From a virus, in IMG/VR virus record IMGVR_UViG_3300040856_003651, positions 1 through 22,424 of that record: a stretch of 22,424 bases of DNA. One strand, 5' to 3'. Position 1 is the first letter of the stretch. Each line of letters begins with the position of its first letter. The notes under the pieces are model-generated. The model ran no database searches and had not been told where the DNA came from. It saw only the letters and a program-made list of their open reading frames with translations. Below, piece by piece: positions 777 through 15,884 of the stretch. A program made the translations under genes and the position numbers.

Positions 777-2387
777 TTATTTCTCCACTATAAGGTCCGG
801 AACATCTTTTCGAACAGCCGTAAAGCTCCAAAAGAATTCTAATTCTCCTAATGTTTTGCAGCGATGACCCTTAACTGTAAATGTATTTTTGGCCAGATCA
901 ATATCATCTACATAAAGAGTTTTGTGGTGTTTATAATTTGTGATTTGAATACTGATATCTTCTTCTCGAACAAGTTTTTTCATATAGGAAGGTAATTTTA
1001 TAACACAAACACCTTCTTTGAGCTTGTCTCTTCCTGTAAGTCTTACTCCGTGATATGGAGACTCTAAAGACCCATATTGTAATTTTTTCCCCTTCTTTGT
1101 GGGGTGATCAATCAAGAAGCTCTTTGTAGAAGCAGCAAGATGTCCGGTTACTGTGGCATCGCTTCCAAAGAAAACATCTCCGGTTATATTTCCAGAACCT
1201 GCTACATCTAACTCATAAACTGGATTAGAATTTTTAACTCCAATATTATCTTGAAAATAACTTATTCCAGCTGCTACTTGCAGTCCCCAATTTTGATCTG
1301 CCCTCTGAGCATATCCATAAAGGGCTACGTTTCTAGTACCAGACCCATAAGCAGTAGCATTGATTCCATAGTTTGTGCCTATGCTTTTATTGTTAAATGC
1401 TTTAATCGCTTGATTGCTACCAGCAGTATCTCCATCATCTACATAAATTCTAACTTTACCACCACCAGTCAAACCATTGTCCCTACCAAACTTTGCACTA
1501 ACCCCGTCTGTATCTAGATGAAGAGTAGTACCATCAAAAGTCATACTAGTTGTAGGTTCCCAATAATCAGCCCCACTATTCCAAACAAGAAGATTATTAT
1601 CTACTACTCCACTAGTATTTACATTATGTAGATCATTGATGCCGCCCGGATTTGTTATTCTTACTAGCAGCTCTCCATTATTACCATCTTTTAAAACAAT
1701 AGCAGTATATATTATATGTTTTGGAGGAACTTTAGTTAAACCACCAGCAGTTGATGGATCTAAAAATAATATATCTCCCTCTACCCAAGTTTCACCATTT
1801 GGATTTAATGCAGTATTTGATGATCGTAAGTCTACTTTTCTTACATGACCAAAATGAACAACATATCCTAGATCTCCATTATTGAGTGTTTCAGCTAAAA
1901 GGCCGATATATCTAACTTCCTCTACACTTAAATCTGCTACAAATTTATCAATCTCTATTCTCTGACCGCCAGCATTAACGCCAGCAGCATATACTGGCTG
2001 ACCCTTATATATTGTCCCGCCACTTAGATTAATAACTCTATAAAATACATCTTGTCCAAGATGCGTTGTAAGAGTATCTGTTAATCCTAAATCAAGTGTA
2101 CCAAGAGTATCGTTCCAGTTTAATTGACCTTCAATTTGATCTATGTCAGCTAAAGAAGAATCAAAGAAAATTTCATCAACACCACTAATCGTAGCTGGAT
2201 TAATAATCTGGCCGCTTACCCCGGCTACAACAAGCCAGGGCAAGTCATCCCATAAATTAGACCCATCACCTATTTTTACATTATTTACAGTAGTATCCCA
2301 GCCTAGCTCTCCAGATGCTAAAATTACATTATTTGACCATTGGGTACTAGTACCACGACGTAGTTGTATACGATTCTTTACGGGCAT
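777..2387 (-). CDS. tail fibre protein with tropism-determinant-like N-terminus (536 aa)
   Basis: The N-terminal ~50 residues (IQLRRGTSTQWS, then GELGWDT and VKIGDGSNLWDDL) form the short domain seen at the start of many phage fibres and in the Bordetella phage Mtd N-terminus; it probably docks the fibre on the virion. The same block opens the 848-codon fibre in this window. Residues ~113-190 are a beta-rich unit (FYRVINLSGGTIYKGQPVY). Residues ~383-418 are a fibre-shaft-like stretch (NPVYELDVAGSGNITGDVFF). The last ~115 residues begin KSFLIDHPTKKGKKLQYGSLESP, a conserved C-terminal fibre block recalling marine phage fibres. It lacks the catalytic S74 chaperone signature that I would expect for an autocleaving tip. 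The gene starts after a 66-nt gap holding palindromes and a late-promoter-like octamer. It probably forms a trimeric receptor-binding or structural fibre. Confidence 0.8.
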   Translation of the reverse strand: MPVKNRIQLRRGTSTQWSNNVILASGELGWDTTVNNVKIGDGSNLWDDLPWLVVAGVSGQIINPATISGVDEIFFDSSLADIDQIEGQLNWNDTLGTLDLGLTDTLTTHLGQDVFYRVINLSGGTIYKGQPVYAAGVNAGGQRIEIDKFVADLSVEEVRYIGLLAETLNNGDLGYVVHFGHVRKVDLRSSNTALNPNGETWVEGDILFLDPSTAGGLTKVPPKHIIYTAIVLKDGNNGELLVRITNPGGINDLHNVNTSGVVDNNLLVWNSGADYWEPTTSMTFDGTTLHLDTDGVSAKFGRDNGLTGGGKVRIYVDDGDTAGSNQAIKAFNNKSIGTNYGINATAYGSGTRNVALYGYAQRADQNWGLQVAAGISYFQDNIGVKNSNPVYELDVAGSGNITGDVFFGSDATVTGHLAASTKSFLIDHPTKKGKKLQYGSLESPYHGVRLTGRDKLKEGVCVIKLPSYMKKLVREEDISIQITNYKHHKTLYVDDIDLAKNTFTVKGHRCKTLGELEFFWSFTAVRKDVPDLIVEK

Positions 2388-2450: not shown

Positions 2451-2458
2451 TATTTATT
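2451..2458 (-). promoter_or_regulatory. candidate late promoter (AATAAATA)
   Basis: On the minus strand the octamer AATAAATA overlaps the stop codon of the 84-codon gene and lies about 64 nt before the fibre ATG at 2387. T4 late promoters use TATAAATA, and cyanophage relatives use NATAAATA. The spot is plausible because one of the larger intergenic gaps in the window follows it. The octamer is common by chance at this base composition, so confidence is low. Confidence 0.35.
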
Positions 2459-2708
2459 GTAGTTCATCCATAGGAGCAGTCCAATCTTCTCCACTTAAAA
2501 TTTCTAAAATTTCAGCGTGGGTGTATGGACCTTCTTTAGTAGAGAGCCCCGAAACGCACGCTGGCATCTCACCTTCCCACTTTACGAAAGTTTTTGTGGA
2601 ATCGACGCTTTTTCTCACGGTCTCCGCACTCGTTTCGAGAACCGTATCAAAATCAATAGCATCTAGTTCGCTAACATTAAAAATCATATAATTTCTATTT
2701 TCGTACAT
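2454..2708 (-). CDS. conserved-type small phage protein, unknown function (84 aa)
   Basis: The longest frame starts at 2723 with ATG AAG GAG ATG ATT ATG. AAGGAG inside it is an ideal Shine-Dalgarno 6 nt before the third ATG at 2708, so the real product most likely starts MYENRNYMIF and has 84 residues. It is mostly helical and acidic, with ETVRKSVDSTKTFVKW and a C-terminal EILEILSGEDWT. I believe similar proteins occur near fibre genes of T4-like marine phages, but I know no function. Its base composition stands out: in 2521-2660, 67 of 140 bases are G or C, with many CpG-containing codons (TCG, ACG, CGA), clearly above the AT-rich LamG and fibre genes on either side. That suggests a separate origin or different selection. 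It lies between the last LamG gene and the second adaptor-bearing fibre. Confidence 0.75.
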   Translation of the reverse strand: MYENRNYMIFNVSELDAIDFDTVLETSAETVRKSVDSTKTFVKWEGEMPACVSGLSTKEGPYTHAEILEILSGEDWTAPMDELQ

Positions 2709-2731
2709 AATCATCTCCTTCATTTGTTAAT

Positions 2732-2745: not shown

Positions 2746-3477
2746 TTATAGGCCAAAGCGGCCTTTTGTTGCCTCAAAATTATTATTCACTTCATCTGCT
2801 GATAGCTCTTTACCATAAATCCTAACAATACTTGTATAGCCAGTGCCTCCGTATTGTGTATCAACAGTTGCTTCTACATTCTTATTTACAGCGAAAGGTC
2901 TGGTGCTACCTGGGCCTAAAGGATTTCTAGCAGATACACTGGTTGACGCAACTTGTTGACCATTTCTATATATTCTCATTCTAGAATTTGCTCTTGAACC
3001 TGTACCAACAATATGATACCACTGATTTGTAGACCATCCAGATGAATATAAAAATTTACCGTCGTATGCCCATTCTAATGAAGATATATTAACTCCATTT
3101 CCAGAAAAACCGTCATACCATATGAGACAGTGATAGTCTGATCTGTCAGTAGACATAAGTCTCTTTTGTGCCTGTATTAGAGTTGGGTAATGCCAAATTT
3201 CATATGTTAATTCACCAGATATGTTGTATAAAAATTTACTTGGGTCTGTACTAATTTCACTAACGCCAAAAGCCAATCCGCCAAAATCATTAACTTGCCA
3301 ATATCCATTACTATTCCAACTAGTATTTGCACTTGTAGAAATAAAACTTCCGTTATAAGTGTACGGAGCTAAATTGTATATAGTTGTTCCGCTGCCAGGA
3401 TATGAATTACGATCCGCTGCATCTAAACACAACACCAGACCATCTGTTACTATTTTTGGACCTGTTCTGTAACTCAT
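2746..3477 (-). CDS. LamG/concanavalin A-like lectin protein (243 aa), last of the array
   Basis: This is a single jelly-roll domain of the LamG_3 type, a fold that usually binds carbohydrate. The N-terminal array signature is GPKIVTDGLVLCLDAADRNSYPG and the C-terminal one ELSADEVNNNFEATKGRFGL. The centre has ELTYEIWHYP, a typical central strand of the fold, and WYHIVGTG...RIYRNGQQVAS, the common 'W.h...... i y.nG' strand pair. The usual FDGSNDY strand is replaced by LAFGVSEISTDPSKF. The start overlaps the previous LamG stop as ATGA (3474-3477), with AAGGTAGG just upstream inside the coding end of that gene, so translation is probably coupled. There is no signal peptide, so it is expected to act as a virion component or an intracellularly made adhesin loaded on particles. 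Confidence 0.85.
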   Translation of the reverse strand: MSYRTGPKIVTDGLVLCLDAADRNSYPGSGTTIYNLAPYTYNGSFISTSANTSWNSNGYWQVNDFGGLAFGVSEISTDPSKFLYNISGELTYEIWHYPTLIQAQKRLMSTDRSDYHCLIWYDGFSGNGVNISSLEWAYDGKFLYSSGWSTNQWYHIVGTGSRANSRMRIYRNGQQVASTSVSARNPLGPGSTRPFAVNKNVEATVDTQYGGTGYTSIVRIYGKELSADEVNNNFEATKGRFGL

Positions 3478-4121
3478 AATCCGTACCTACCTTTTGTTGC
3501 GTTGTAGTTTTGTAATATTTGTTCATCGCTCAATTCTCTATCATAACAGGCAAATGTATATATGCGTGTTGTGTCGCTATCTCCAGACAAACCCGTAAGT
3601 CCAAGTGGACCAGAATTTGTTATTCCTAAATTATTTGCTCCACCAACCCTAGAACCTATTTTAGTATCATTTGCCCACATTTGACCCCCGCCTTTATCAA
3701 CATCAAATTGTAATGACATAAAAACCGTTTCATTTAAACTCATGTTATAATAACTAGAAATCGTTCCCCAATTACCTCCTCTATTAGCATACCACCCTAT
3801 AAGTCCTTCCATGTGAGGAGTGGTTCCATTAAAATTATGAAAATGATATAAAACAAAAGAAGATGTGCTTGTGCCTCCGTCTTTTCTAACAAAACGAGTG
3901 GAGTATTGAGTACTATTACCTATTTTTTGCCACCATAAACAAATAGTTATTTTAGTAACATTATTTGACCAATCAGCTGTGTTATAGTTTGCACCAGAAA
4001 AGGCCGTTCCAGTAACTAGGTCTTTGATAGATTGACCAGGAGGAAGAGAGTTAGGATCGGCTGTGTCCAAATAAAGAACAAGCCCGTCTTCTACGATATC
4101 TGGCCCACCACTAATTGCCAT
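3474..4121 (-). CDS. LamG-like protein, short divergent paralogue (215 aa)
   Basis: It has the array N-terminus GPDIVEDGLVLYLDTADPNSLPPG and C-terminus ELSDEQILQNYNATKGRYGL. Between them it is the shortest member. The FDGSNDY-type strand that should follow the N-terminal block is absent: GTAFSGANYN leads straight into WSNNVTKITICLWWQ. Residues ~105-115 GLIGWYANRGGNW match GWYSNLAGGF of the 219-residue paralogue, making these two a likely subgroup. The start is set by AAGGAG 9 nt upstream in an 18-nt gap, one of the few array junctions without overlap. The fold is probably intact but trimmed at one edge, which could alter ligand binding. Confidence 0.8.
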   Translation of the reverse strand: MAISGGPDIVEDGLVLYLDTADPNSLPPGQSIKDLVTGTAFSGANYNTADWSNNVTKITICLWWQKIGNSTQYSTRFVRKDGGTSTSSFVLYHFHNFNGTTPHMEGLIGWYANRGGNWGTISSYYNMSLNETVFMSLQFDVDKGGGQMWANDTKIGSRVGGANNLGITNSGPLGLTGLSGDSDTTRIYTFACYDRELSDEQILQNYNATKGRYGL

Positions 4122-4139
4122 GTCTCTTCGCTCCTTATT

Positions 4140-4832
4140 CTAGAGGCCAAATCGGCCCTTGGTTGCTTGGTAATTCTGTAGAATTTCGCTATCCAACAAT
4201 GCTCTGTTATAAAACTGCACCAAGGCACAACTTCCAGCAGTATAACCAGTACCTAAACCTGGACCCATTATTCTAAAATTATGACCACTAGTATTATTAA
4301 ATTGACCGTTTAAATTCTTTTGGCTTTTATACTCACCCTGGTGAAAAAGTTTAATTTTTATACCAGTAGCGTTCCATACACTACCAGAAACACCAGCGTA
4401 TCTCCATGTATCATCACCAAATATTCCAGCATCAGATGGATATTGGTTGGGGGAGTTACTTGTGTCCGTTCTACAATTTAGGGTACGATTAGGAGCTATT
4501 AACAAATTCCAACCTTGCGATCCGCTGCTGTAGGCTATTAATGTTTTAAAAGCAGTAATATTAGCTTTAAACCACCCTAAAGCGGTAAAATTGTTTAATG
4601 GTAAAATATCACTCAGGCCAGGAACATTAATAAAATCATTACTGCCATCAAAATTAAAAATTCCATTGTTATTATTCAAATAGTTTGGACCATTTAATAT
4701 TTGTCCATTGTGTGAATTTACAGAAATATCTGTCCATGTACTACCGCTTCCAGCGTAGCTATTCTTGTCTGCTGCATCCAGACACAAAACGAGTCCATCT
4801 GTTACTATTCTGGGGCCGTAATTATTGCTCAT
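4140..4832 (-). CDS. LamG/concanavalin A-like lectin protein (230 aa)
   Basis: This is a canonical array member: GPRIVTDGLVLCLDAADKNSYAG at the N-terminus, NGIFNFDGSNDFINVPG (residues ~60-77) as the first jelly-roll edge, NNFTALGWFKAN in the centre, and FYNRALLDSEILQNYQATKGRFGL at the end. These match LamG_3 (PF13385-type) domains, which bind glycans or act as fibre modules. Its ATG (4832-4830) overlaps the TGA of the 219-codon gene, and its Shine-Dalgarno AAAGGAAG lies in that gene's codons for the final KGR. It ends in TAG, then an 18-nt spacer precedes the next gene. Specific ligand and virion location are not deducible from sequence. Confidence 0.87.
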   Translation of the reverse strand: MSNNYGPRIVTDGLVLCLDAADKNSYAGSGSTWTDISVNSHNGQILNGPNYLNNNNGIFNFDGSNDFINVPGLSDILPLNNFTALGWFKANITAFKTLIAYSSGSQGWNLLIAPNRTLNCRTDTSNSPNQYPSDAGIFGDDTWRYAGVSGSVWNATGIKIKLFHQGEYKSQKNLNGQFNNTSGHNFRIMGPGLGTGYTAGSCALVQFYNRALLDSEILQNYQATKGRFGL

Positions 4833-5488
4833 AGTCCGAATCTTCCTTTTAGGGCTGCATAATTTTTATCTAATTCGTCCATAGACAATGCTCTATTGTA
4901 CATTAATATTGTAGATATCTTACCCCAAGGTTGTGACGGCCAACATATTCTATAATTATTGATGCCAGAACAATTATTTCCAGCAGTATTAGTAGTTGAA
5001 TTTCCAACCTGTGTGCTGCCATCAATATAAAATTTATTAGTAGAACCATTTTCTCCAAGAAGAGTTAACATATTCCATCTCGCTTCAAGACCTCCAGTTT
5101 CAACATTATAGCCGCAGTCCCTAAAACCTCCTGCAAGATTAGAATACCATCCTAGTTTATTTGCTGTTGATACAATAAGTGGATGCTCTGAATCTCCTCT
5201 TACTAAAGTTCTCCAATTAGATGGTGAATCTTTCATATCATTAAACGAAATAACAGTATAGTTGTCACCATAATATAGGTTTATTCCAGTCTTATCTGCA
5301 TATTCATTGGTAGCAAAATCCAAGGATTTACCATCCCAAGCGGGAGAATTGTATAGTATGTAATTTATATTGTATGGGGCTAGATTATACCAAGTATTTC
5401 CACTACCAGGATAACTCTTCCTATTCGCTGCATCTAAATGCAGCACTAATCCATCGGTAACTATTCTGGGGCCGTTTGCGTAGCTCAT
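4829..5488 (-). CDS. LamG-like protein (219 aa)
   Basis: The N-terminal array block is GPRIVTDGLVLHLDAANRKSYPG with NTWYNLAPYN, and the C-terminal block is MYNRALSMDELDKNYAALKGRFGL. The centre is divergent: SLDFATNEYADKTGI stands in for FDGSNDY, and GWYSNLAGGF...CGYN resembles the 215-residue paralogue. NKFYIDGSTQVGNS is the typical late strand with an exposed loop. The ATG (5488-5486) overlaps the stop of the 226-codon gene as ATGA, with AAGGGGAGA inside that gene's codons for KGR. It is probably translated by termination-reinitiation. The LamG assignment rests mainly on the shared ends. Confidence 0.82.
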   Translation of the reverse strand: MSYANGPRIVTDGLVLHLDAANRKSYPGSGNTWYNLAPYNINYILYNSPAWDGKSLDFATNEYADKTGINLYYGDNYTVISFNDMKDSPSNWRTLVRGDSEHPLIVSTANKLGWYSNLAGGFRDCGYNVETGGLEARWNMLTLLGENGSTNKFYIDGSTQVGNSTTNTAGNNCSGINNYRICWPSQPWGKISTILMYNRALSMDELDKNYAALKGRFGL

Positions 5489-6165
5489 TTTCCAAATCTC
5501 CCCTTTAATGCATTATAATTCTGTAACACTTCAGCGTCTGTTAAATCTCTTTCATACGCCATAATTAATCCCATTTGCCCAGACCAATAGCCACCTGTAT
5601 ACCCAGTACCAAGAGTAACACTAGCACTAGTATTTGTTAGTGTTCCATATGAATGGCTATATGTAGCAGTTCTAGATCCATCTTTAAACCATCTATGCTC
5701 TGTTGTATTCCTTACAGTTCCCATGCAAATCCATTCGTTTCTTGGTGTACCAGCACTAGCTCTACCTGCATATGGACTAGAATTACCCCCAGCATCACCC
5801 CAATAAGAACTTATGGTATTATTAAGTTCATGAGTCCATGTGCCATATCCACCATAAGCTTGATTCCAAGGATTTCTTCTACCAACTTGAGTAGCTGAAT
5901 GATACATCCATATTAATAATGTTTGTGCTGTAGCCCATCCGTCAAAATTCGTCCCCGTATCAGTAATTGCCAAATAATCATTAGTTCCATCAAAGCTAAT
6001 CACATTACTACTTATTGAAATGCCGTTTAACATTATACCATTATTTCCACGACCAGACAAATCATATAGCGTTGTTCCAGAACCTGGATAGCATTTTCTA
6101 TTAGCTGGATCTAAATATATCATTAGTCCATCAGTTACTATTCTTGGTCCATATAAATTTGCCAT
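5485..6165 (-). CDS. LamG/concanavalin A-like lectin protein (226 aa)
   Basis: The N-terminal block is GPRIVTDGLMIYLDPANRKCYPG plus TLYDLSGRGNNG, the most classical 'WtDlSG.gn.g' form in the array. VISFDGTNDYLAITDTG (residues ~55-70) is the FDGSNDY strand, TAQTLLIWMYHS the central strand, and YERDLTDAEVLQNYNALKGRFGK the C-terminus. Here the final residue is K instead of L. Large loops rich in G, N, W and Y (WNQAYGGYGTW, GDAGGNSSPYAG) are candidate glycan-binding surfaces. The start follows TAGGAGAGAATTATA, 12 nt after the stop of the 426-codon gene. Its end supplies both Shine-Dalgarno and overlapping stop for the next LamG gene. Confidence 0.87.
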   Translation of the reverse strand: MANLYGPRIVTDGLMIYLDPANRKCYPGSGTTLYDLSGRGNNGIMLNGISISSNVISFDGTNDYLAITDTGTNFDGWATAQTLLIWMYHSATQVGRRNPWNQAYGGYGTWTHELNNTISSYWGDAGGNSSPYAGRASAGTPRNEWICMGTVRNTTEHRWFKDGSRTATYSHSYGTLTNTSASVTLGTGYTGGYWSGQMGLIMAYERDLTDAEVLQNYNALKGRFGK

Positions 6166-6177
6166 TATAATTCTCTC

Positions 6178-7458
6178 CTATACATATGCTGTTCCATTCC
6201 AAGCTTGTTTTCGAACTCTAACTGAATAGAATCCACCATATACATTATTATTACTATACAAAGATGTGTCTACATAGACTGTTTTACCAGTGCCATAATT
6301 TACAGAATATAAAAGAGAAGAGCCATTATAGTGTTTTAAAGTGCCATCGGTATTGTAAACAATGTATAGTTTTTCATTTGCGTTCCAAGTTTTAGACGGA
6401 GTGATACCCGCACCATTGTTGTAAAGAACAAAGGAATTTTGTTGATATGGATAAGCAGCATAATCAAGAGTATTGTAACTTGAGTTAGATGTAGGATCAA
6501 CATTCCATGATATCATAGCGTAGCTTTGACCATTATTACTAGCCGCTGCGTTTTTTCTATATTCTATTGTACATGGTGCGGTAAAGCTGGTTGTACTATA
6601 GAATTGTCTGTTCCATCCAGTACTACCAATCCTAAACATATCAACATTTTTACCGCCATTATTACTTATATAGATATTTCCTGAATTATCTGTAGTATAT
6701 GTTACATTCTCATAGTCTGAAAGATCTTCTTCTGGGTATCGACCTTTTAACGCATTGTAATTATCTTTTATTTCTTTATCTGATAATTGCCTATCATAAA
6801 AAGAAACTTTACTTATCTCACCATCAAAATTCTGGTTAGAAGCACCACGACGACCTATTTCTGGGAGAGTACCATTATTTTTGATCGGTCCTGTTTTATT
6901 AGTATTTGCTGTCGTAACTAATTCTCCATTAAGATATCCCTTAACTTGTCCAGATGTTCCACCATTACCATAACGATTAAATGTCCATGCAAAATGATAC
7001 CAAACATTTCGACAAATAGAATCTTCACCTATTTGTGCTCCTCTAGCATCTCCACCAGAACCATCAAACCAAGTATTGTCTGACTGCCTTAAATCTATTC
7101 CAACAGCATTTTTATACTGAGCTATCCATAATTGAGATTCTTCAATATATAATTGATAATACGGTGAAGCCTTAGCTGGTTGCATATTATGAAATTTAAC
7201 AAACGCTTGCCAAGTAAATTCATCTTTACCGGCAACAATAGATTCCGATAAACTAAAATAATCGTTAGATCCGCTAAGTATAAACTTTCCTTTTCTAGCT
7301 GTAGAAAAACTGGGACTATTAACGAGTGTAAAATTTCTTCCACGACCAGAAAGATCTTTCCAACTTGAACCAGTGCCAGGGAATGATTTTCTATTTGCCG
7401 CATCTAAATGCAAAACAAGACCATCTGTTTCTATATCAGGACCGCCATAAATACTCAT
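6178..7458 (-). CDS. two-domain LamG fusion protein (426 aa)
   Basis: Residues 1-~243 are a full array-type LamG domain: GPDIETDGLVLHLDAANRKSFPG, GKFILSGSNDYFSLSES, DEFTWQAFVKF, FYDRQLSDKEIKDNYNALKGRYP. Instead of stopping after KGR it continues for ~180 residues into a second, beta-rich domain (FYSTTSFTAPCTIEYRKNAA, then SYAMISWNVDP, LYIVYNTDGTLKHYNGSSL and GKTVYVDTSLYS). I take this for a second lectin-like sandwich seen in marine phage structural proteins, though I cannot name the family. The start ATG lies in the 3' half of an inverted repeat that also contains the Shine-Dalgarno GGAG. It overlaps the stop of a 15-codon mini-ORF. The fusion suggests the KGRFGL end is a module boundary. 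Confidence 0.83.
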   Translation of the reverse strand: MSIYGGPDIETDGLVLHLDAANRKSFPGTGSSWKDLSGRGRNFTLVNSPSFSTARKGKFILSGSNDYFSLSESIVAGKDEFTWQAFVKFHNMQPAKASPYYQLYIEESQLWIAQYKNAVGIDLRQSDNTWFDGSGGDARGAQIGEDSICRNVWYHFAWTFNRYGNGGTSGQVKGYLNGELVTTANTNKTGPIKNNGTLPEIGRRGASNQNFDGEISKVSFYDRQLSDKEIKDNYNALKGRYPEEDLSDYENVTYTTDNSGNIYISNNGGKNVDMFRIGSTGWNRQFYSTTSFTAPCTIEYRKNAAASNNGQSYAMISWNVDPTSNSSYNTLDYAAYPYQQNSFVLYNNGAGITPSKTWNANEKLYIVYNTDGTLKHYNGSSLLYSVNYGTGKTVYVDTSLYSNNNVYGGFYSVRVRKQAWNGTAYV

Positions 7459-7502
7459 GAGGATAACTCCTCTCTATTATATGAAAAATTTATTTTTCTC
7501 AT
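7455..7502 (-). CDS. 15-codon coupling mini-ORF between LamG genes
   Basis: The stop of the 227-codon LamG gene overlaps an ATG in the same ATGA manner as other array junctions, with GAGGGAGG upstream. The frame reads MRKINFSYNREELSS and ends in TGA that overlaps the ATG of the 426-codon gene, again as ATGA. It exactly spans the gap between the two genes. It may be a leader maintaining translational coupling, or the scar of a deleted LamG gene. The peptide itself matches nothing I know, and chance cannot be excluded for so short a frame. Confidence 0.4.
   Translation of the reverse strand: MRKINFSYNREELSS
7459..7472 (-). promoter_or_regulatory. hairpin containing the Shine-Dalgarno of the 426-codon gene
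   Basis: On the minus strand GAGGA-GTTA-TCCTC forms a 5-bp stem with a 4-nt loop immediately before the ATG at 7458. The left arm holds the GAGGAG Shine-Dalgarno. Folding would hide the site unless a ribosome arriving from upstream opens it, which fits translational coupling through the mini-ORF. The stem is short and its stability is untested. Confidence 0.35.
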
Positions 7503-8182
7503 ACTCCAAACCTCCCTCTGGTGGCGTTGAAATTCTGACGAACTTCGTTCGCTAACAATTGACGATCATATAATGTTACTTGGGACATATAACCTTGCCA
7601 CGGTTTTTCGTTTTCGTATGGTCGCCATCCTATTCTAAAATTACCGCCATTTGCTTGTGAAGATAAAGTCTGAGTTCCATTAAACTTAGATTCTCCATTG
7701 ACATATATAGTAACAGTCTGACCGGGATTCCAAACAAAGCCAACATGCCACCATGTATTTGTAGTTATAGTAAAACCAGTATCATTATCTGTGGTTTGTC
7801 CATATGCTTGAAATTTTAAGTTGTTGCTTGTGCTTTGTAATTCAAAATCTCCTCGATTCTGGATATTATTAACTAGAGCATACCAACTCCATATTTTTTG
7901 TCTAGCATAAGTTGTAGTATAAACCCAGGCAAAAAAACTATTTCCATTAGCATCATAAGTTCCTGTAGGTATACCAGTATCGAAATAATCATTTGACCCA
8001 TTCAATTCAAAACAGCCTCCATAGAATGAGCGTGGTGCTGGTCCACTTCTATATATGTTATTTTTTGCTGGACTAAGATCGTACACTGTAGTACCACTAC
8101 CAGGATAACTCTTGCTGATAGCAATATCCATACAAAGAACTAAACCATCAGTTGTTATTTTAGGACCATTTCTATACGCCAT
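7499..8182 (-). CDS. LamG/concanavalin A-like lectin protein (227 aa), first of the array
   Basis: The array signature is GPKITTDGLVLCMDIAISKSYPG with TVYDLSPAKNN, then CFELNGSNDYFDTGIPTG (FDGSNDY strand), NSFFAWVYTT (central strand), WWHVGFVWNPGQTVTIYVNG (strand pair with the nG turn) and LYDRQLLANEVRQNFNATRGRFGV. All elements of a LamG_3 jelly roll are present, so this is one of the clearest members. The start at 8182 overlaps the end of the 124-codon gene by 11 nt and uses GAAGAG just upstream. Its last codons form AGAGGGAGG, the likely Shine-Dalgarno for the following mini-ORF. It is probably a virion adhesin or receptor-binding protein; the ligand is unknown. Confidence 0.88.
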   Translation of the reverse strand: MAYRNGPKITTDGLVLCMDIAISKSYPGSGTTVYDLSPAKNNIYRSGPAPRSFYGGCFELNGSNDYFDTGIPTGTYDANGNSFFAWVYTTTYARQKIWSWYALVNNIQNRGDFELQSTSNNLKFQAYGQTTDNDTGFTITTNTWWHVGFVWNPGQTVTIYVNGESKFNGTQTLSSQANGGNFRIGWRPYENEKPWQGYMSQVTLYDRQLLANEVRQNFNATRGRFGV

Positions 8183-8546
8183 TATTCTCTTCCATTAAAA
8201 CCCATGTTTGATTCTCTTCGTCCCAATAGTATTCAGCATCATCTTCAGGATAAGGAACTGGAGCTTGCCAATCAAACTCTTCGTTTAAAGTCCAACTGGG
8301 AAAAGGTTGTGGTGGGATAAAAACATCATTTTCCTCATTATAATTATACCCTATTCCAGCATATCTCTTGCGGAAATTGCTATTGTAGCTGGTTTGCTTC
8401 CATGTTCCCGCTAAACCAAGCTGGTTGATGAACGCTTGCCCACAACTTTCGCTTGAGGGAAACTCTCCTCCACAGCAATTGTCGTTGCTTACTACTATTA
8501 CTTGTTGAACAGTACCGTTCTCGTCTATTTGTGCAAAGTGTGCCAT
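8172..8546 (-). CDS. conserved phage protein, MAHFAQIDENG family (124 aa)
   Basis: I recognise this as a protein widespread in T4-like cyanophages and marine phages. It begins MAHFAQIDENGTVQQVIVVSN, continues with WKQTSYNSNFRKRYAGIGY and the hallmark DVFIPPQPFPSWTLNE, and ends in an acidic tail. Its function is not established; it is generally found next to structural and fibre genes and is presumed a small structural protein. The copy here appears full length. A cysteine cluster (NDNCCGGEF...ESCG, residues ~22-36) is present in the variable loop. The start (8546) overlaps the TAA of the 56-codon gene as TAATG, with the strong Shine-Dalgarno GAGGAGG upstream. It is well placed for coupled translation with the LamG array downstream. 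Confidence 0.88.
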   Translation of the reverse strand: MAHFAQIDENGTVQQVIVVSNDNCCGGEFPSSESCGQAFINQLGLAGTWKQTSYNSNFRKRYAGIGYNYNEENDVFIPPQPFPSWTLNEEFDWQAPVPYPEDDAEYYWDEENQTWVLMEENNGV

Positions 8547-8716
8547 TATTCCTCCTCTATACTTAGAACTTCTACAATGTTATAGAAATTTAATTTTTGT
8601 ATAGCTTCTTCTTGTGAATTGGCTAATACGTCTGTAATCAATAAGATTTCTTGAGTTTCCTCATCACTTAGATCAAATTTGTCTATAATTTTTAATGTTA
8701 TCGTATACTTATTCAT
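8546..8716 (-). CDS. small protein of unknown function (56 aa)
   Basis: This gene starts with ATG at 8716-8714, overlapping the TGA of the 432-codon gene as ATGA, and ends in TAA overlapping the ATG of the 124-codon gene as TAATG. It thus fills exactly the gap between them. The product begins MNKYTITLKIIDKFDLSDEE and ends VEVLSIEEE. It has alternating hydrophobic residues at the start and a central segment TDVLANSQEEAIQKL that looks helical. This beta-helix-acidic pattern recalls small ferredoxin-like phage proteins, but I do not recognise a family. The end of the gene encodes the GAGGAGG Shine-Dalgarno of its neighbour. The double overlap is the main argument that it is real. Confidence 0.68.
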   Translation of the reverse strand: MNKYTITLKIIDKFDLSDEETQEILLITDVLANSQEEAIQKLNFYNIVEVLSIEEE

Positions 8717-10011
8717 AATACTGTTAATGCCTTCATATGTCTATCACTTAATATTGTAGGTACGCAAAATATTTTTTTATAGAAAGCATCAGGATATAAT
8801 GCAATACTATTTATGGTACTTGTGTAAGTTGAATTTGCAGCAGAGTTTGAGGAGTAGACCGATCCATTATTCATACAAGCTTTTGATCCTAAGCCAGCCT
8901 GATATGTAAGTATGCCTTTATTATTATCGTCCAATATAGGAAAACTACCATAATCATATGAGGCCTGTCCACTTTTTCTAAAAGTAATATTAGAATTATT
9001 ACTATACTGTCTAAATCTACAAGTCGTTGAAGTAGGCTGGATGGCCATGTAGCTTGATATAACACCAACCTTAAAATTGTTTAATGGCATTGAAAACTGA
9101 CCAAATAAAGACAATTTATCGTTTCCATAGGTTCCTAAAAAATTAGTACTAACATAAAAAGAATCATTAGAGTTACTAGCTGTAGATGTTGTAGTTTTAA
9201 CATAACTTCTAGCAGTTGCCTGATAGGCAAAACTGATATTTGATTCATGCATAGTCATTGCGCCCCATATGTATAAACCATCTCCAGAAGATCCGGTGAT
9301 AGAATTAGAAGATGTAGTTGGTGTGTATGTTACAGTATAGGTTTTATTAGTAAAATTATCGTCTTTTACACATAAAAAACATCTATACCATCCATTCCCC
9401 ATTCTCATTATATGTTTGTATGTATATACTAAATAATTACTGTTAGAATCATTTGATCCTGTAGTTGCATTTGTTAAGTTAAAATAGCAAGACAAACTGT
9501 CTGTTCCATTCTCTATTTTTATATTTAAATATGAGCATTCATCCGCTTTAACCATAACAGATAAATGAAAACATCTTCTATTACCAGTATTAGTATTGAC
9601 ATAGCCTGTTGTGTATGATTGACTAACATTTCCTCCAGAAGAAGATATTGATAATTTTTGAGCATTATTGATACCATCTGGACTCAAGACTGATGACGAA
9701 CTTATGGTTGATGACGTTTTAGTCCATACGCTTTGACTAAAATCTTCACTATGTAGAAATACATTATTTCTCGAAGATTCTATTAGTAAGCCTTTATATA
9801 CTAAATTGTCATTACTATCATACTCATATCCAAAACGAGGTTCATTGACACTTGCTGTTTGTAAATACCCATTACTTCCAATATATGTTCCTATGGAGTT
9901 ACGAGTATACGTTACGGGACCACCTATTGCTCCTGAATTTGGGTTTACTTCTTTACGTCTTTCAAAATCTCTATAAAAAGTAGATTGTAAACTTCCATAA
10001 TTAATTCCCAT
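8713..10011 (-). CDS. phage tail/spike protein with carbohydrate-binding-like domain (432 aa)
   Basis: Residues ~34-100 show a signature common in phage tail and spike proteins: TYTRNSIGTYIGSNG, NEPRFGYEYD, GLLIESSRNNVFLHSEDFSQS and VWTK. These introduce a CBM-like beta-sandwich (residues ~85-265) with SPDGINNAQKLS, FHLSVMVKADE and NGWYRCFLCVK. The C-terminal ~165 residues look like a second beta domain rich in S, T and N, ending in FCVPTILSDRHMKAL, a weak echo of the LamG-type endings. The expected role is glycan recognition on the particle surface. The start overlaps the stop of the LamG/Gly-rich gene as TAATG, with AAAGGGAGG inside that gene's KGR codons, so it belongs to the same coupled series although it is not itself a standard array member. 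Confidence 0.78.
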   Translation of the reverse strand: MGINYGSLQSTFYRDFERRKEVNPNSGAIGGPVTYTRNSIGTYIGSNGYLQTASVNEPRFGYEYDSNDNLVYKGLLIESSRNNVFLHSEDFSQSVWTKTSSTISSSSVLSPDGINNAQKLSISSSGGNVSQSYTTGYVNTNTGNRRCFHLSVMVKADECSYLNIKIENGTDSLSCYFNLTNATTGSNDSNSNYLVYTYKHIMRMGNGWYRCFLCVKDDNFTNKTYTVTYTPTTSSNSITGSSGDGLYIWGAMTMHESNISFAYQATARSYVKTTTSTASNSNDSFYVSTNFLGTYGNDKLSLFGQFSMPLNNFKVGVISSYMAIQPTSTTCRFRQYSNNSNITFRKSGQASYDYGSFPILDDNNKGILTYQAGLGSKACMNNGSVYSSNSAANSTYTSTINSIALYPDAFYKKIFCVPTILSDRHMKALTVL

Positions 10012-11603
10012 TATAATCCAAACCTCCCTTTAGTAGCATTATAGTTGTCTTTAATTTGTTTTTCTGATAAAGCTACATTATCATAAACTTTTACAGAAGC
10101 TACGTCTCCCAGTAATGGCAGGGCACCATATTGATAATTTGGAACAATAGTGGAACCTATTCTAAAAGGTAGTGGATCGCCATAGTATTCAAGCGTATTA
10201 TCAACAAGCGTATTAGTATTATAACCCTGCAATTCACCATTGAGATAAACATATGCAGTTTTTACAGAACCATCCCAAACTAATGTTCCATTTACCCATT
10301 CTCCAGAAGCATAAGAATTATTTGCAGTTCCAAACAATGCTCTATCTCCATTATTATCTTCTATATTAACATAGAATCTATATGTTGAATTAGCGTGAAT
10401 CTCAATAGTTGCATTGTATCCTCTAAATGTTGTAAATAAAGCCCTGTTTGTACTACCGTCACTATTATCTCTATACCAAATATCTATACTAAATTTTCCA
10501 CCAGCTGAACTAATGCCAAGATTACCAGCAGTTACAGGGGTTTGTATATATTGATTACTTCCATCAAAACTAAAATAACCCTTATTACCTGTACTATAAT
10601 CACTTGGTCCCATATTCTCTAAAGTACCAACAATCTTACTAGTACTTAAACCACCAACTCTACCACCAACAGTAAAAGTACCACTACTAGTAAATACATG
10701 AATGGTATATCCTTTTCTTGTAATTATACTGTCTCCACCTGTAGCTTTTTGTGGGCCTTTATATTTAATTATTACAACTCCAGAACCACCATTCCCCGCA
10801 GATCTACTACTGTAACTAACATTATATCCTCCTCCTCCTCCACCAGAACCTGTATTAGCCGAAGCATTTCCGTTTATGTTTGCATCATTGGAATTAAAAC
10901 CTCCACTACCAGCACCACTACTACCAACTCCAGGTATATATGGGCCTCTATAACTTCTGACGCCACCCCCTCCTCCACCAGCAAACCATCCATCTTCACC
11001 TAAAGATCTACCAAAAGAATAACCAAAATACCTACCTATTCCACCATTTCCTCCTTTGCTATTAACAACAAAAGCATTCCCGGCATTGGTTCCGACTCCT
11101 CCTGCTCCACCACCACCAGCACCTAAATCTCCATTGCCGTTATTACCTCCATTATTACCCTGTCCAGAAATTCCTGTTCCTCCATTGTAGCTCCCATTTG
11201 CACCTCCTCCTCCAGATCCTCCGTTTTTTGTTGTAGAAGAAGTAGCTCCTCCATGATGATCTCCACCGCCACCTCCAGTACTAGTAACGCTAAAAGCTGA
11301 ACTATTACCGCCAACTTTACCGTCTTGACTACTAGTATTCCATCCCGTGCCTCCAGCACCACCAGCACCAACAGTAACTGTATAACTTCCAGTAGATAAG
11401 CTAGCTCTAGTATACCCATGCAATAAGCCACCAGCACCACCACCACCGCCAATAACGCCACCGCCGCCGCCACCTCCAGCAACTATCAAATACTCAACAG
11501 GAAGGCCATTAATAGGATACGCCCTATCACTCACAGCACCAGCAGCATCTAGATTAAATACTAATCCATCTGTTACTATATCGGGACCACCTTTTACACT
11601 CAT
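10011..11603 (-). CDS. LamG protein interrupted by a glycine-rich domain (530 aa)
   Basis: Residues 1-30 are the array-type N-terminus (GGPDIVTDGLVFNLDAAG) and residues ~316-530 the rest of a LamG domain (GYFSFDGSNQYIQTPV, FSIDIWYRDN, TAYVYLNGELQGY, VYDNVALSEKQIKDNYNATKGRFGL). Between them, residues ~31-315 form a glycine-rich phage domain: VEYLIVAGGGGGGG, GGGAGGLL, repeated GGGGG blocks, GSGVVIIKYKG, and finally YTIHVFTSSGTFTV. Such Gly-rich domains occur in fibre tips, where polyglycine-II helices can present receptor-binding loops. The insertion after the first LamG strand keeps both parts in frame. The start follows AAGGAG 9 nt upstream. The end supplies a Shine-Dalgarno (AAAGGGAGG) and TAATG overlap for the next gene. 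Confidence 0.85.
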   Translation of the reverse strand: MSVKGGPDIVTDGLVFNLDAAGAVSDRAYPINGLPVEYLIVAGGGGGGGVIGGGGGAGGLLHGYTRASLSTGSYTVTVGAGGAGGTGWNTSSQDGKVGGNSSAFSVTSTGGGGGDHHGGATSSTTKNGGSGGGGANGSYNGGTGISGQGNNGGNNGNGDLGAGGGGAGGVGTNAGNAFVVNSKGGNGGIGRYFGYSFGRSLGEDGWFAGGGGGGVRSYRGPYIPGVGSSGAGSGGFNSNDANINGNASANTGSGGGGGGYNVSYSSRSAGNGGSGVVIIKYKGPQKATGGDSIITRKGYTIHVFTSSGTFTVGGRVGGLSTSKIVGTLENMGPSDYSTGNKGYFSFDGSNQYIQTPVTAGNLGISSAGGKFSIDIWYRDNSDGSTNRALFTTFRGYNATIEIHANSTYRFYVNIEDNNGDRALFGTANNSYASGEWVNGTLVWDGSVKTAYVYLNGELQGYNTNTLVDNTLEYYGDPLPFRIGSTIVPNYQYGALPLLGDVASVKVYDNVALSEKQIKDNYNATKGRFGL

Positions 11604-11618: not shown

Positions 11619-14165
11619 CTATGGTGTGCCCCCATCTATTGTGCAGAAGGTGAGAACTGTTGGTGCTGCTGCACTTACTCCACTAATAGCCACAAGACCA
11701 TCTATTCTATTGCTACTTGAACCTAATTCTACTTCTGTTGTTCCAAAAGTAACACTATCATTTTCTAGTTGTAGATTACCAACTCCGCTCGCCTTGATAG
11801 ACACAGCGCCAGTAGTCACACTAAAATCACCGCTATCAAAACTAGCTATACCTTTTACAGATGTTGTAGCAAGAGTATGTGTGGTTGTGTTTACTGCTGT
11901 TACTCTTCCGTATGTGTCTGTAGTAACAGAAGAAACAAAGCTATTAGTTGGACCAGCTGTACCATTTGTTCTAGATACTGAAGGCAGTCTAGCTTCATTT
12001 AGTGTCCCGGACGAAATATTGCTGGCATTAAGATTTGTCAGAGAACTACCATTTCCACTAAATGTAGCACTAATAGTTCCAGCACTAAAGTTTCCGCTAG
12101 AGTCTCTACTTACAATGGTATCTGCTGTATTAGCTGGAGTAGCATTACTTTCAACTGTAAATGTTGCTCCTTCTCCAGCAGAACCACCAAGAGTAAGGCC
12201 AGACCCATTTACTGCTACAGCAGCAACATAGTTTCCTGTAGTATCTGTACCAAGAGCAACACTGTCGGGCTGAATCGTGGTATTTAGAGAAAGACTAACA
12301 TTGCCATTAAGATTAGTCCAAGTTAGATTATCTGAACCAACAACGTCTCCAGTTAGAGCAACTGTGATAACAGGATCGGGAAGATCTGTGAAATTATCCC
12401 AATCTAGATAGTGTGAGCCATGTTGACCATCTAATAGATCAGCATTTAGGTTTGTAACAGCAGTAGTAGATGTTACAACAAATGGAGCTGTACCATTTGC
12501 AACTGTAGAAATGAATCTATTTGCTTGGAAGTTTTCTGACCCAACTTCCCATCTACCATCAACATTATCCCAAACAAGTTGTTTATAGTCACTTGTTCCA
12601 CTATTTCTTACTTCAAGACCACCAGTAGGAAGACCACTGGTATTTACTCGAATAATATTGTCTCCGATTTCTACAACAGTAGAATTAACTGTGGTTGTAG
12701 TACCAGCAACAGTAAGATCACCACCAACCGTTACGTTTCCAGTTGTGGTTAGGGTAGCTGTTTGAACATGATCTGCTGTAACAGTTCCTGTAGCGGTTAC
12801 ATTGCCTGCCGTTAGAAGATTAGTAGCAGCATTATAGGATAGATCCCCATCTGTTCTAACGGTTTCATTAGTAGCAGAACCATTGTCTGAATCTACAAAT
12901 GTTAGGTAATGGGTTCCAGTGTCTGTTGTAACTGTCTTAACTTGGTCAGCACTACTAATATTACCAACAACAGTACCAACTGTAAGAGTATTAGTACTAG
13001 GATTATACGATAGTGCCGTATCTGTCTCTATTCCTTGAGTTCCAGTAGAACCGTCTACAAAAGTAAGATAAACCGTTTCATTTGTACCATTATTAGCAGT
13101 AACTGTTACGTTGGTTGCTTCTGTAGCTGTATCTGCATTTCCTGTTACGTCACCAGTAAGATCTCCAACAAAACCAACGCTAGCATAGACGCTTGTACCA
13201 CTAACTACAGCAGCACTATTAGCACCTATAACTGTTCCATCAATACTTCCGCCATCAATATCTACACTAGCAAAAGAAGAAGAACCAGTAGAAGTAACAT
13301 CTCCACTTAGGTCACCAGAAAATGTTACTGCTGTTACTGTGTCTGTAGCCGTAAGATTTCTTATTCCATCTATATCTTTACTAGAGTCCAATACAACAAC
13401 TCTATTTGCACTAGCAGTACCAGGAACAACCCCAGAAAGATATCCTAGTTCAGTAAGGCTTGCTTTAACCTTAGCGTCTGTTATATTATCCCAGATATGG
13501 GTATGAGTATCATCTAGAACTGCTGTACTAATTGTAAGCGTGTTATTACCGCTATCATAAACAAAATTAATTCCAGTACCAGCAATAAGCTGTGTATCAA
13601 TATTTCCGCTAATTGCTGCATCCCAGTCATTAATCAATGTATGATCAATTCCTGTAACTGCTATACTGTATACTTTATTACTGCTTTCTGTGGTTTCTGT
13701 AACTCCAATTCCTGTACTTTCTTCAACCCTTAGTGTCATTCCTGTTACACTAACAGTGGTAAATCCTGTAGGGTCGTCATAAGACTTATCTATACCAAAA
13801 CCGCCCACAACACCACTATTACCGATAATATCTTGAACACCTTCTACATTTAAGGATCCACTAGAAGTCGCAATAAAATTTGCCAACCATGTTTCATCAA
13901 CACTCCATGTTGCGTTTTCCCATGAGCCAGAACCTCCTACAACACTATCAAAGACTATATTAATACCACTGCTTTCTACAAAGTTTGTAGAATTTAAAGG
14001 GACAGAAGTATAATTAAGATCATTCCATGCTGTGGTTCCATCTCCAATCTTAATTTTCTTTGTGTCTGTTTCAAATCCTATTTCACCAGAATATAGTATC
14101 GGGTTTTGAGATGTCCATAGAGCCGCTGATCCTCTTCTTACTTGTAATCTTGTATTAACTGGCAT
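11619..14165 (-). CDS. large tail fibre protein (848 aa)
   Basis: The N-terminus LQVRRGSAALWTSQNPILYSGEIGFETDT..KIGDG is the same adaptor domain as in the 536-residue fibre. The rest is low-complexity T/S/N/G-rich beta shaft typical of long phage fibres: GDLTGDVTGNADTATEA, two related ~53-residue units each with YLTFVD (near residues 365 and 418) followed by LSYN..TN.LT, and GDLTVAGTTTTVNSTVVEIGD. ADLLDGQHGSHYLDW (near 575-590) is a hallmark motif of T4-like fibre proteins. It ends TFCTIDGGTP, similar to the preceding small protein's end. There is no S74 autocleavage motif. The start follows GGAGATAATACAA. It is probably a trimeric long fibre, possibly carrying or partnering the LamG proteins encoded behind it; partnering is inferred. 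Confidence 0.86.
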   Translation of the reverse strand: MPVNTRLQVRRGSAALWTSQNPILYSGEIGFETDTKKIKIGDGTTAWNDLNYTSVPLNSTNFVESSGINIVFDSVVGGSGSWENATWSVDETWLANFIATSSGSLNVEGVQDIIGNSGVVGGFGIDKSYDDPTGFTTVSVTGMTLRVEESTGIGVTETTESSNKVYSIAVTGIDHTLINDWDAAISGNIDTQLIAGTGINFVYDSGNNTLTISTAVLDDTHTHIWDNITDAKVKASLTELGYLSGVVPGTASANRVVVLDSSKDIDGIRNLTATDTVTAVTFSGDLSGDVTSTGSSSFASVDIDGGSIDGTVIGANSAAVVSGTSVYASVGFVGDLTGDVTGNADTATEATNVTVTANNGTNETVYLTFVDGSTGTQGIETDTALSYNPSTNTLTVGTVVGNISSADQVKTVTTDTGTHYLTFVDSDNGSATNETVRTDGDLSYNAATNLLTAGNVTATGTVTADHVQTATLTTTGNVTVGGDLTVAGTTTTVNSTVVEIGDNIIRVNTSGLPTGGLEVRNSGTSDYKQLVWDNVDGRWEVGSENFQANRFISTVANGTAPFVVTSTTAVTNLNADLLDGQHGSHYLDWDNFTDLPDPVITVALTGDVVGSDNLTWTNLNGNVSLSLNTTIQPDSVALGTDTTGNYVAAVAVNGSGLTLGGSAGEGATFTVESNATPANTADTIVSRDSSGNFSAGTISATFSGNGSSLTNLNASNISSGTLNEARLPSVSRTNGTAGPTNSFVSSVTTDTYGRVTAVNTTTHTLATTSVKGIASFDSGDFSVTTGAVSIKASGVGNLQLENDSVTFGTTEVELGSSSNRIDGLVAISGVSAAAPTVLTFCTIDGGTP

Positions 14166-14885: not shown

Positions 14886-15884
14886 TTATAGAGTACCAAT
14901 AAGTGCTCTACGATTATCTAGAACTGCAAAACCTTGCTCAGCCCATCCGTAGAAACCTGCTCTCTTCTGACGATGAAGTGTTTCATCCTCAAAAATTTGA
15001 ACTTCTTGACGTACTGGCATGATAAAGCTGTCTCTCTTACGAAGATCGAGACCAACTACGATTTCTTCATCAGCACTCATTGGAGCTGATAGAACATTCT
15101 CATAGAATAATTGGTATTCTTGGTCTTTACCAAGTTCGTCTAGATCATGAAGATTAACACCAAAAACTCTATTAACGGAACCATCAGCAGCTGTATAGAT
15201 CTCACGACGAGTAATTTCGTCTACTTGATCTAGTCCCCAGTTGCGGATATCTTCCATTGCTTCTGGTGAAACATAAAGATCTGTTAACATACCACGATTA
15301 TTACTGGTGCTGTTACCACCACCATTACGACGCATAACTGTTTTCATAAGAGAAACTAGTCTCTTTGTGAACTGACCTAAATCAGCGTCATCGTCATTAA
15401 CATAGATGTTACGATCAACAGCAGCAGCAAGAAGAGTGTGCCAGCCATCGTCGTTCATTTTCTTAACAAATTGAGCCTCTAAAAGCTCCATAGCTCTACC
15501 AACTACATCCCAACGAGCATCGCGGGCATACTTTAGTAGATAATCAATGGATGCGCCAATGTCATAGGTTGGAACCATGACATAGTCACCTTCAACATGA
15601 CGTTGTGGAATATATCCATGATTAGGGATGGTATAAGCAACAAAGTCTTTTTCAGTACCTGGAGCTAAGAAATCTAAAGGAAATTCTGGGGTGGCACTTT
15701 GATCCAATGATATTGGTTCAAAAATTCCATCTAGAATATCTCCATTGAGAATTCCTTGACGTAATGGTAGCTCTAGAGCCTTAGCAAACTCATAATTTGC
15801 TGCTAAAGCTTCTTCTCTACGAGCTGATCCAGAACGTTTTAGAAGTTCTGTAAGCTCTGGTGTTGGATTAAATCTATTTGCCAT
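14886..15884 (-). CDS. major capsid protein, HK97-fold type (332 aa)
   Basis: It follows the protease-scaffold and decoration genes in the classical head order and is the last gene before a strong terminator. Features consistent with a capsid protein include a helical N-terminal arm (LTELLKRSGSARREEALAANYEFAKAL), PTYDIGASIDYLLKYARDARWDV, a long central helix region, TDLYVSPEAMEDIRNW, and the C-terminal run QEVQIFEDETLHRQKRAGFYGWAEQGFAVLD. That ending, with R.GFYGWAEQGF, is typical of capsid proteins whose last strands close the A-domain. Its G+C content looks higher than in the fibre genes, as expected for a highly expressed gene. The Shine-Dalgarno is AAAGGGAGAAG. The N-terminus could be trimmed by the upstream protease; I cannot fix a cleavage site. 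Confidence 0.88.
   Translation of the reverse strand: MANRFNPTPELTELLKRSGSARREEALAANYEFAKALELPLRQGILNGDILDGIFEPISLDQSATPEFPLDFLAPGTEKDFVAYTIPNHGYIPQRHVEGDYVMVPTYDIGASIDYLLKYARDARWDVVGRAMELLEAQFVKKMNDDGWHTLLAAAVDRNIYVNDDDADLGQFTKRLVSLMKTVMRRNGGGNSTSNNRGMLTDLYVSPEAMEDIRNWGLDQVDEITRREIYTAADGSVNRVFGVNLHDLDELGKDQEYQLFYENVLSAPMSADEEIVVGLDLRKRDSFIMPVRQEVQIFEDETLHRQKRAGFYGWAEQGFAVLDNRRALIGTL

What the first reader, a model, noticed from the sequence alone, without database searches (positions are those of the whole stretch)
2746..8182. Seven tandem LamG paralogues with conserved ends and diverged centres
Seven consecutive genes share opening (GPxIVTDGLVL.LDxA) and closing (nyxAtKGRfGL) blocks, at protein level and partly at DNA level, while the middle differs strongly, including presence or absence of the FDGSNDY strand. 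An eighth relative sits upstream. Single LamG genes are common in marine phages; a run this long looks like a maintained adhesin repertoire. I infer modular exchange by recombination at the borders, giving variable glycan recognition, perhaps with alternative subunits on shared attachment points.
Basis: partly seen in the sequence, partly recalled or inferred. Interest (0 to 1): 0.75.

Follow-up and report, generated by a model that had tools for sequence, protein, structure and literature searches.

The report
Phage lectin array with swappable cores
A virus that infects bacteria carries a row of eight sugar-binding-type proteins; related viruses swap the middles of such proteins like cartridges while the short ends stay fixed, apparently so that each still fits its own place.

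Summary
Seven LamG genes (A-G, 2746-8182, minus strand) and an eighth (H, 10011-11603) have conserved ends (about 60% aa identity) and diverged centres (11-30%). Within this array the borders are conserved as protein only; codon identity is at the chance level.

The inferred exchange is supported by relatives. In L091, gene G matches at 91.5% nt through its start and 97% at its last 31 nt, with unrelated cores between. Contigs L130 and L131 are 100% identical over about 69 kb sampled and differ there only in the core of one LamG gene.

Beyond the finding: (1) such arrays occur in hundreds of phage contigs; three genes is the commonest size. (2) The first ~8 residues mark gene position: 30 of 37 typed trios hold one of each of three tag types (shuffled 8.3±2.5), while cores move between tags. 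(3) An uncharacterised 89-aa protein (2454-2723) lies near LamG in 78 of 80 loci and was not found in bacterial genomes. (4) The closing KGRFGL codons double as the next gene's ribosome-binding site.

Best reading: interchangeable lectin cores on fixed slots, swapped by ordinary recombination. No reverse transcriptase or invertase was found. Virion location and ligands are inferred.

The parts
2746..3477 (-). LamG gene A, N-terminal tag YRTGPK (slot-2-like by eye; the one-residue rule calls it type 3)
   Evidence: Laminin_G_3 54.6 bits (cut-off 27.6)
3474..4121 (-). LamG-like gene B, tag ISGGPD (slot 3), lacks the FDGSNDY strand
   Evidence: no Pfam hit but PHROG 24074/8510 and shared ends
4140..4832 (-). 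LamG gene C, tag NNYGPR (slot 1)
   Evidence: N block 87% nt to L091 gene 11521-12227
4829..5488 (-). LamG gene D, tag YANGPR (slot 2)
5485..6165 (-). LamG gene E, tag NLYGPR (slot 1)
6178..7458 (-). LamG gene F, tag IYGGPD (slot 3), with an extra C-terminal domain of about 185 aa; 67% aa identical to its L091 counterpart, so its core was not swapped
7499..8182 (-). LamG gene G, tag YRNGPK (slot 2); core replaced relative to L091
10011..11603 (-). LamG gene H, tag VKGGPD (slot 3), Gly-rich PF21722 domain inserted after the first strand
2454..2723 (-). p89, small partner protein of LamG arrays, no known family
8172..8546 (-). p124 (phrog_7759), 96% aa identical to its L091 counterpart
8062..8557 (-). 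496-nt block 91.5% identical to L091, covering p124 and the start of G
   Evidence: converted from reverse-complement coordinates
7498..7528 (-). 31-nt block at the end of G, 96.8% identical to L091
4716..4900 (-). D-end/C-start junction block, 81% nt identical to the junction of two LamG genes in L091 whose cores are only background-similar
10004..10081 (-). end block of H, 86% nt identical to L091 while the H core is diverged
777..2387 (-). fibre with Mtd_N start and C-terminal SFLIDHPTKKGKKLQYG domain; fibres of this kind neighbour 66 of 102 arrays
11619..14165 (-). fibre with Mtd_N start, upstream of H

Best explanation
The array encodes a set of lectin-type adhesins built as cartridges. 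Each protein has (i) an N-terminal tag of about 8 residues that marks its position in the gene set, (ii) a shared first strand, (iii) a LamG core that would contact the receptor, and (iv) a shared C-terminal helix and tail whose codons also supply the ribosome-binding site of the next gene. Phages replace whole cores by recombination between the conserved border blocks, while tags stay in place. Shown by sequence: conserved tags and borders, core replacement in relatives, movement of cores between tag types, linkage to p89, and the ribosome-binding-site codon bias. Inferred: that the proteins sit on the virion near the neighbouring fibres, that tags direct docking, that cores bind host glycans, and that p89 helps assembly or docking. 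In this phage the eight genes carry two slot-1, three slot-2 and three slot-3 tags (A assigned by eye).
For: Conserved ends and diverged cores; solved LamG folds align mostly to profile positions 27 or 57 to about 217, so the tag and the last residues lie outside the known fold. Window vs L091: G matches at 95-100% up to the tag, 40-50% in the core, 100% at the tail; same for the H end and the D/C junction. L101 vs L292/L300/L286: flanks 88-99%, several junction blocks 92-97%, centres unrelated. L130 vs L131: no mismatch in 59.4 kb sampled plus 9.8 kb of flank, one core replaced between 100% borders. L115 slot-3 core is 92% nt identical to the L308 slot-1 core, diverging only at the tag. Tags: 30 of 37 typed trios carry all three types, shuffle mean 8.3, maximum 19 of 20,000; without any typing, same-position tag identity 0.344 vs 0.297±0.002 (z 20.5), against z 2.4-3.8 for two nearby control stretches. 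Type does not predict core identity (0.279 vs 0.278). p89: 78 of 80 loci have LamG within 5 kb. AGG for the KGR arginine: 58% where the next LamG gene abuts, 19% otherwise, 11% elsewhere in these genes.
Against: No virion proteomics or binding data for this phage. 'Structural protein' labels on the two LamG genes of Flavobacterium phage immuto could not be traced to an experiment. The tag rule was made after seeing the first data; in the p89-selected set only 3 trios could be typed (2 of 3 complete), as freshwater lineages use other tag alphabets. Within-array tag identity is only slightly, not significantly, below shuffled (z -1.4). Core identity of about 0.28 is near the alignment noise floor.
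Confidence: 0.7

Rival explanations
1. Ordinary family conservation: the ends are conserved because they are structural parts of every protein of this phage LamG family, and the array arose by old duplication and divergence. No special exchange is needed.
For: 90 aligned family members show the same conserved ends. In the window's own array synonymous sites are saturated, so no recent border exchange between its paralogues.
Against: It does not explain 99-100% nt identical N blocks followed by about 34-37% aa cores, the L130/L131 replacement, cores shared between different tag types, or position-specific tags.
Confidence: 0.15
2. Assembly artefact: metagenome assemblers joined different phages at near-identical border blocks, producing false hybrids.
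For: Border blocks are repeated and sometimes identical over 90 nt or more; the L130 and L131 contigs both end just past the swapped gene.
Against: Eight other arrays were recovered 100% identical in two or more contigs with different sample numbers. Many hybrids have borders at 81-97%, not 100%, and genes stay in frame with the right slot tag. In L131 both borders of the new core are identical to L130, so the alternative core must itself lie between those borders or be misjoined twice.
Confidence: 0.08
3. A dedicated diversification machine (diversity-generating retroelement or invertase) acts on the array.
For: The neighbouring fibres have an Mtd_N domain, named after the DGR target Mtd.
Against: No reverse transcriptase in 32 records and no serine recombinase in 30; many are fragments. 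Change is replacement of whole cores, not scattered adenine-site substitutions, and all genes of the array lie on one strand.
Confidence: 0.03
4. The LamG proteins are not adhesins but capsid decorations or secreted proteins; swapping reflects immune-like or surface selection unrelated to receptors.
For: PHROG 8510, matched by these genes, is labelled head and packaging; the array follows the capsid genes.
Against: The region also holds two Mtd_N fibres and tail-labelled PHROGs; fibre genes neighbour most arrays; in some relatives a sheath-like protein follows the array.
Confidence: 0.12

Closest known systems
T-even gp38 tail-fibre adhesins (T2, PP01, S16)
   Same: Constant segments flank hypervariable receptor-binding segments; changes there alter receptor specificity (PMC12892980 for structure and history; segment swapping by recombination is from my own knowledge).
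   Different: gp38 is one adhesin with polyglycine-II loops at a fibre tip; here whole LamG cores are replaced, in sets of several genes with position tags. H alone carries a Gly-rich domain (PF21722).
Umbrella-toxin UmbA lectins of Streptomyces
   Same: A relatively conserved attachment part plus highly variable lectin domains, several per particle, and lectin swapping retargets the particle (PMC13274773).
   Different: Bacterial toxin particles, a trypsin-like attachment domain, mostly beta-propeller lectins; no sequence relation was tested.
Host-recognition clusters and metaviromic islands of marine phages
   Same: Hypervariable host-recognition regions, some with concanavalin-A domains (PMC3909814, PMC7029224).
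   Different: Described as variable regions; the passages read do not describe gene trios, position tags or core replacement.
Diversity-generating retroelements (Mtd of phage BPP-1)
   Same: Variable lectin-type adhesins; Mtd_N domain in the neighbouring fibres.
   Different: No reverse transcriptase found; variation is replacement of whole cores.

Membership tests
Laminin_G_3 (PF13385) domain family | Profile score above the curated cut-off | tested here: met
   A, C, E, F, G, H above cut-off; D 23.4 bits, below 27.6; B no hit
Laminin_G_3 (PF13385) domain family | Jelly-roll lectin fold | tested here: met
   Model of G, pLDDT 82, matches trans-sialidase lectin domain, arabinanase AbnA domain 4 and others, E to 1.6e-10; not modelled for the other seven
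T-even gp38 adhesin | Glycine-rich domain carrying the variable segments | tested here: not met
   Genes A-G have no Gly-rich Pfam hit; only H has PF21722, which differs from the seven
Diversity-generating retroelement | Reverse transcriptase near the variable gene | tested here: not met
   0 of 32 records with PF00078; records are partly fragments
Invertase-driven phase variation | Serine recombinase | tested here: not met
   0 of 30 records with PF00239; tyrosine recombinases not tested
Tail-fibre assembly chaperones (for p89) | Sequence or fold match to a solved chaperone | tested here: inconclusive
   No sequence match in the PDB, no Foldseek match below E 1, best VIA Z 4.6 to an unrelated protein
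Phage receptor-binding protein (for the LamG genes) | Present on the virion and binds the host | not testable with these tools
   Database label 'structural protein' in phage immuto only

The most novel reading that the evidence does not exclude
A widespread multi-slot adhesin system in aquatic phages: three LamG proteins with distinct N-terminal address tags dock at three separate positions with the help of a dedicated small partner (p89), and lectin cores circulate as interchangeable cartridges among slots and phages.
Probability: 0.45. Interest if true: 0.8.

Novelty: new variant of a known kind. Interest (0 to 1): 0.62.

Why it matters
If right, it gives phage host-range change a readable grammar: tags say where an adhesin goes, cores say what it binds. 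Aquatic phages could then be compared by which cores occupy which slots, core exchange could be followed in time series, and the link between receptor repertoire and host strain diversity becomes testable. It also gives a first functional context to an uncharacterised phage protein family (p89) with hundreds of members.

Tried and rejected
Recent gene conversion between this array's own paralogues: rejected for this phage, although 35 of 80 sampled arrays show such an excess of shared codons. Diversity-generating retroelement and serine invertase: not found. The array as a conserved feature of this capsid lineage: rejected; of 80 MCP relatives only L007, which is nearly the same phage, has a LamG hit, and 36 of the others have at least 5 kb downstream. 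p89 fold: no convincing solved relative; only uncharacterised viral proteins match. p89 in 84,980 bacterial and archaeal genomes: ten pattern matches, none confirmed. A first alphabet-free tag test with a poor anchor was redone with a better one. Literature: no paper on LamG gene trios was found in the open library; subscription papers are not covered. Host of this phage: not determined.

Full report
Observation. Identity along the alignment drops from about 0.6 in the first 24 columns (0.51 in the next 12) to 0.11-0.30 in the centre and rises to 0.49-0.70 at the end. The strand FDGSNDY is kept in C, E, F, G and H, altered in D and missing in A and B. DNA-level similarity inside the array is no more than protein conservation predicts.

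Setting. The contig belongs to an uncultured phage with terminase, portal, capsid and two Mtd_N fibres; L007 is nearly the same phage (99.98% over 17.5 kb). Its capsid relatives (79-80 loci at 84-88% or more identity) lack LamG downstream of the capsid gene and carry other fibres there. So the array is a replaceable module in a variable region.

The family. After grouping loci that share identical genes, 120 groups remained; 56 hold exactly three LamG genes, and the largest array has 14. Long arrays are therefore real but not unique.

Exchange of cores. The syntenic relative L091 shares the order fibre, H, p124, G, F, D, C. In G, identity is 95-100% through p124 and the tag, about 75% in the first strand, 40-50% in the core, and 100% at the tail. 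D and C keep tag and junction but have background-level cores; F was not swapped. Elsewhere, N blocks of 90 nt at 99-100% identity are followed by cores at 34-40% aa identity, and flanking genomes are 88-99% identical in the L101/L292/L300/L286 group. L130 and L131 show no mismatch in 59.4 kb of sampled sequence and 9.8 kb of flank, but the third LamG gene changes after nt 212 and returns to identity at IYNKAL. Eight other arrays were found 100% identical in separately assembled contigs.

Tags. In most marine trios the residue two before the first proline is Y/F, H/N, or small (A, G, S, R). Of 37 fully typed trios, 30 hold one of each (shuffled 8.3±2.5, maximum 19). The rule was formed on loci L087-L257; of the trios fetched afterwards (L261 on), 7 of 11 typed ones are complete. 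In a third set chosen by p89, only 3 trios were typable because freshwater lineages use other motifs. A test without typing, on 63 trios, gives the same answer: tags match across phages by gene order (z 20.5), against z 3.8 and 2.4 for stretches just behind, while those stretches, unlike the tags, are more alike within an array. Core identity does not depend on tag type or on sharing an array (0.28 in all classes), and 26 of the 45 most similar core pairs were scored as different types, two of them only because one tag was untyped relative to a near-identical neighbour. The clearest case is the L115 slot-3 core, 92% identical to the L308 slot-1 core from just behind the tag.

Borders as more than fold. 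Known LamG structures mostly start aligning at profile position 27 or later and end near 217, so the tag and closing residues are additions. Where the next LamG gene abuts, the codons of the closing KGR are strongly biased to GGA/GGG and AGG, which reads as a Shine-Dalgarno sequence; in the window this is seen before A, C and D. The closing block is thus constrained both as protein and as DNA.

p89. The small gene behind A has relatives in 54 of 102 arrays, 36 of them inside the array. Starting from p89 instead, 78 of 80 loci have LamG within 5 kb, and the two exceptions are short pieces. It matches no Pfam or PHROG family, no solved structure, and was not confirmed in any of 84,980 cellular genomes. 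Its only cultured carriers found are S-SKS1 and the immuto phages, which also carry the LamG family. A role in assembly or docking is inferred from position alone.

Structure. The model of G is a jelly roll with a C-terminal helix (pLDDT 82). Its best structural matches are carbohydrate-binding or lectin-like domains. A shared fold does not show what is bound.

Judgement. The claim that a long run is unusual is not. The position tags and p89 go beyond the finding. What the proteins bind and where they sit are inferences.

Noticed in passing
2454-2723: p89: conserved small protein family tied to LamG arrays, no known family or fold match, not confirmed in cellular genomes.
   Followed up: yes
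2746-5488: Codons of the closing KGRFG block act as Shine-Dalgarno of the overlapping next gene; family-wide codon bias.
   Followed up: yes
L130:9634-10329 and L131:9634-10368: One LamG core replaced between two contigs identical over all other stretches compared; both contigs end near the array, as expected of a polymorphic site.
   Followed up: partly
8172-8546: p124 is 96% aa identical to L091 although other shared genes are about 70% at nt level, so it was probably exchanged recently together with the start of G.
   Followed up: partly
10011-11603: H carries a Gly-rich PF21722 domain between tag strand and LamG core; similar insertions occur in other arrays.
   Followed up: no
6178-7458: F has an extra C-terminal domain of about 185 aa, conserved in L091, without a Pfam match.
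   Followed up: no
2-556 (longer in L250:15903-17600): Start of a large protein of at least 566 aa, no PHROG or Pfam hit for the part in the window, one relative in L116.
   Followed up: no
14886-15884: Capsid protein of a large uncultured phage group (at least 599 matching stretches), distantly like Bacillus phage G gp27.
   Followed up: partly
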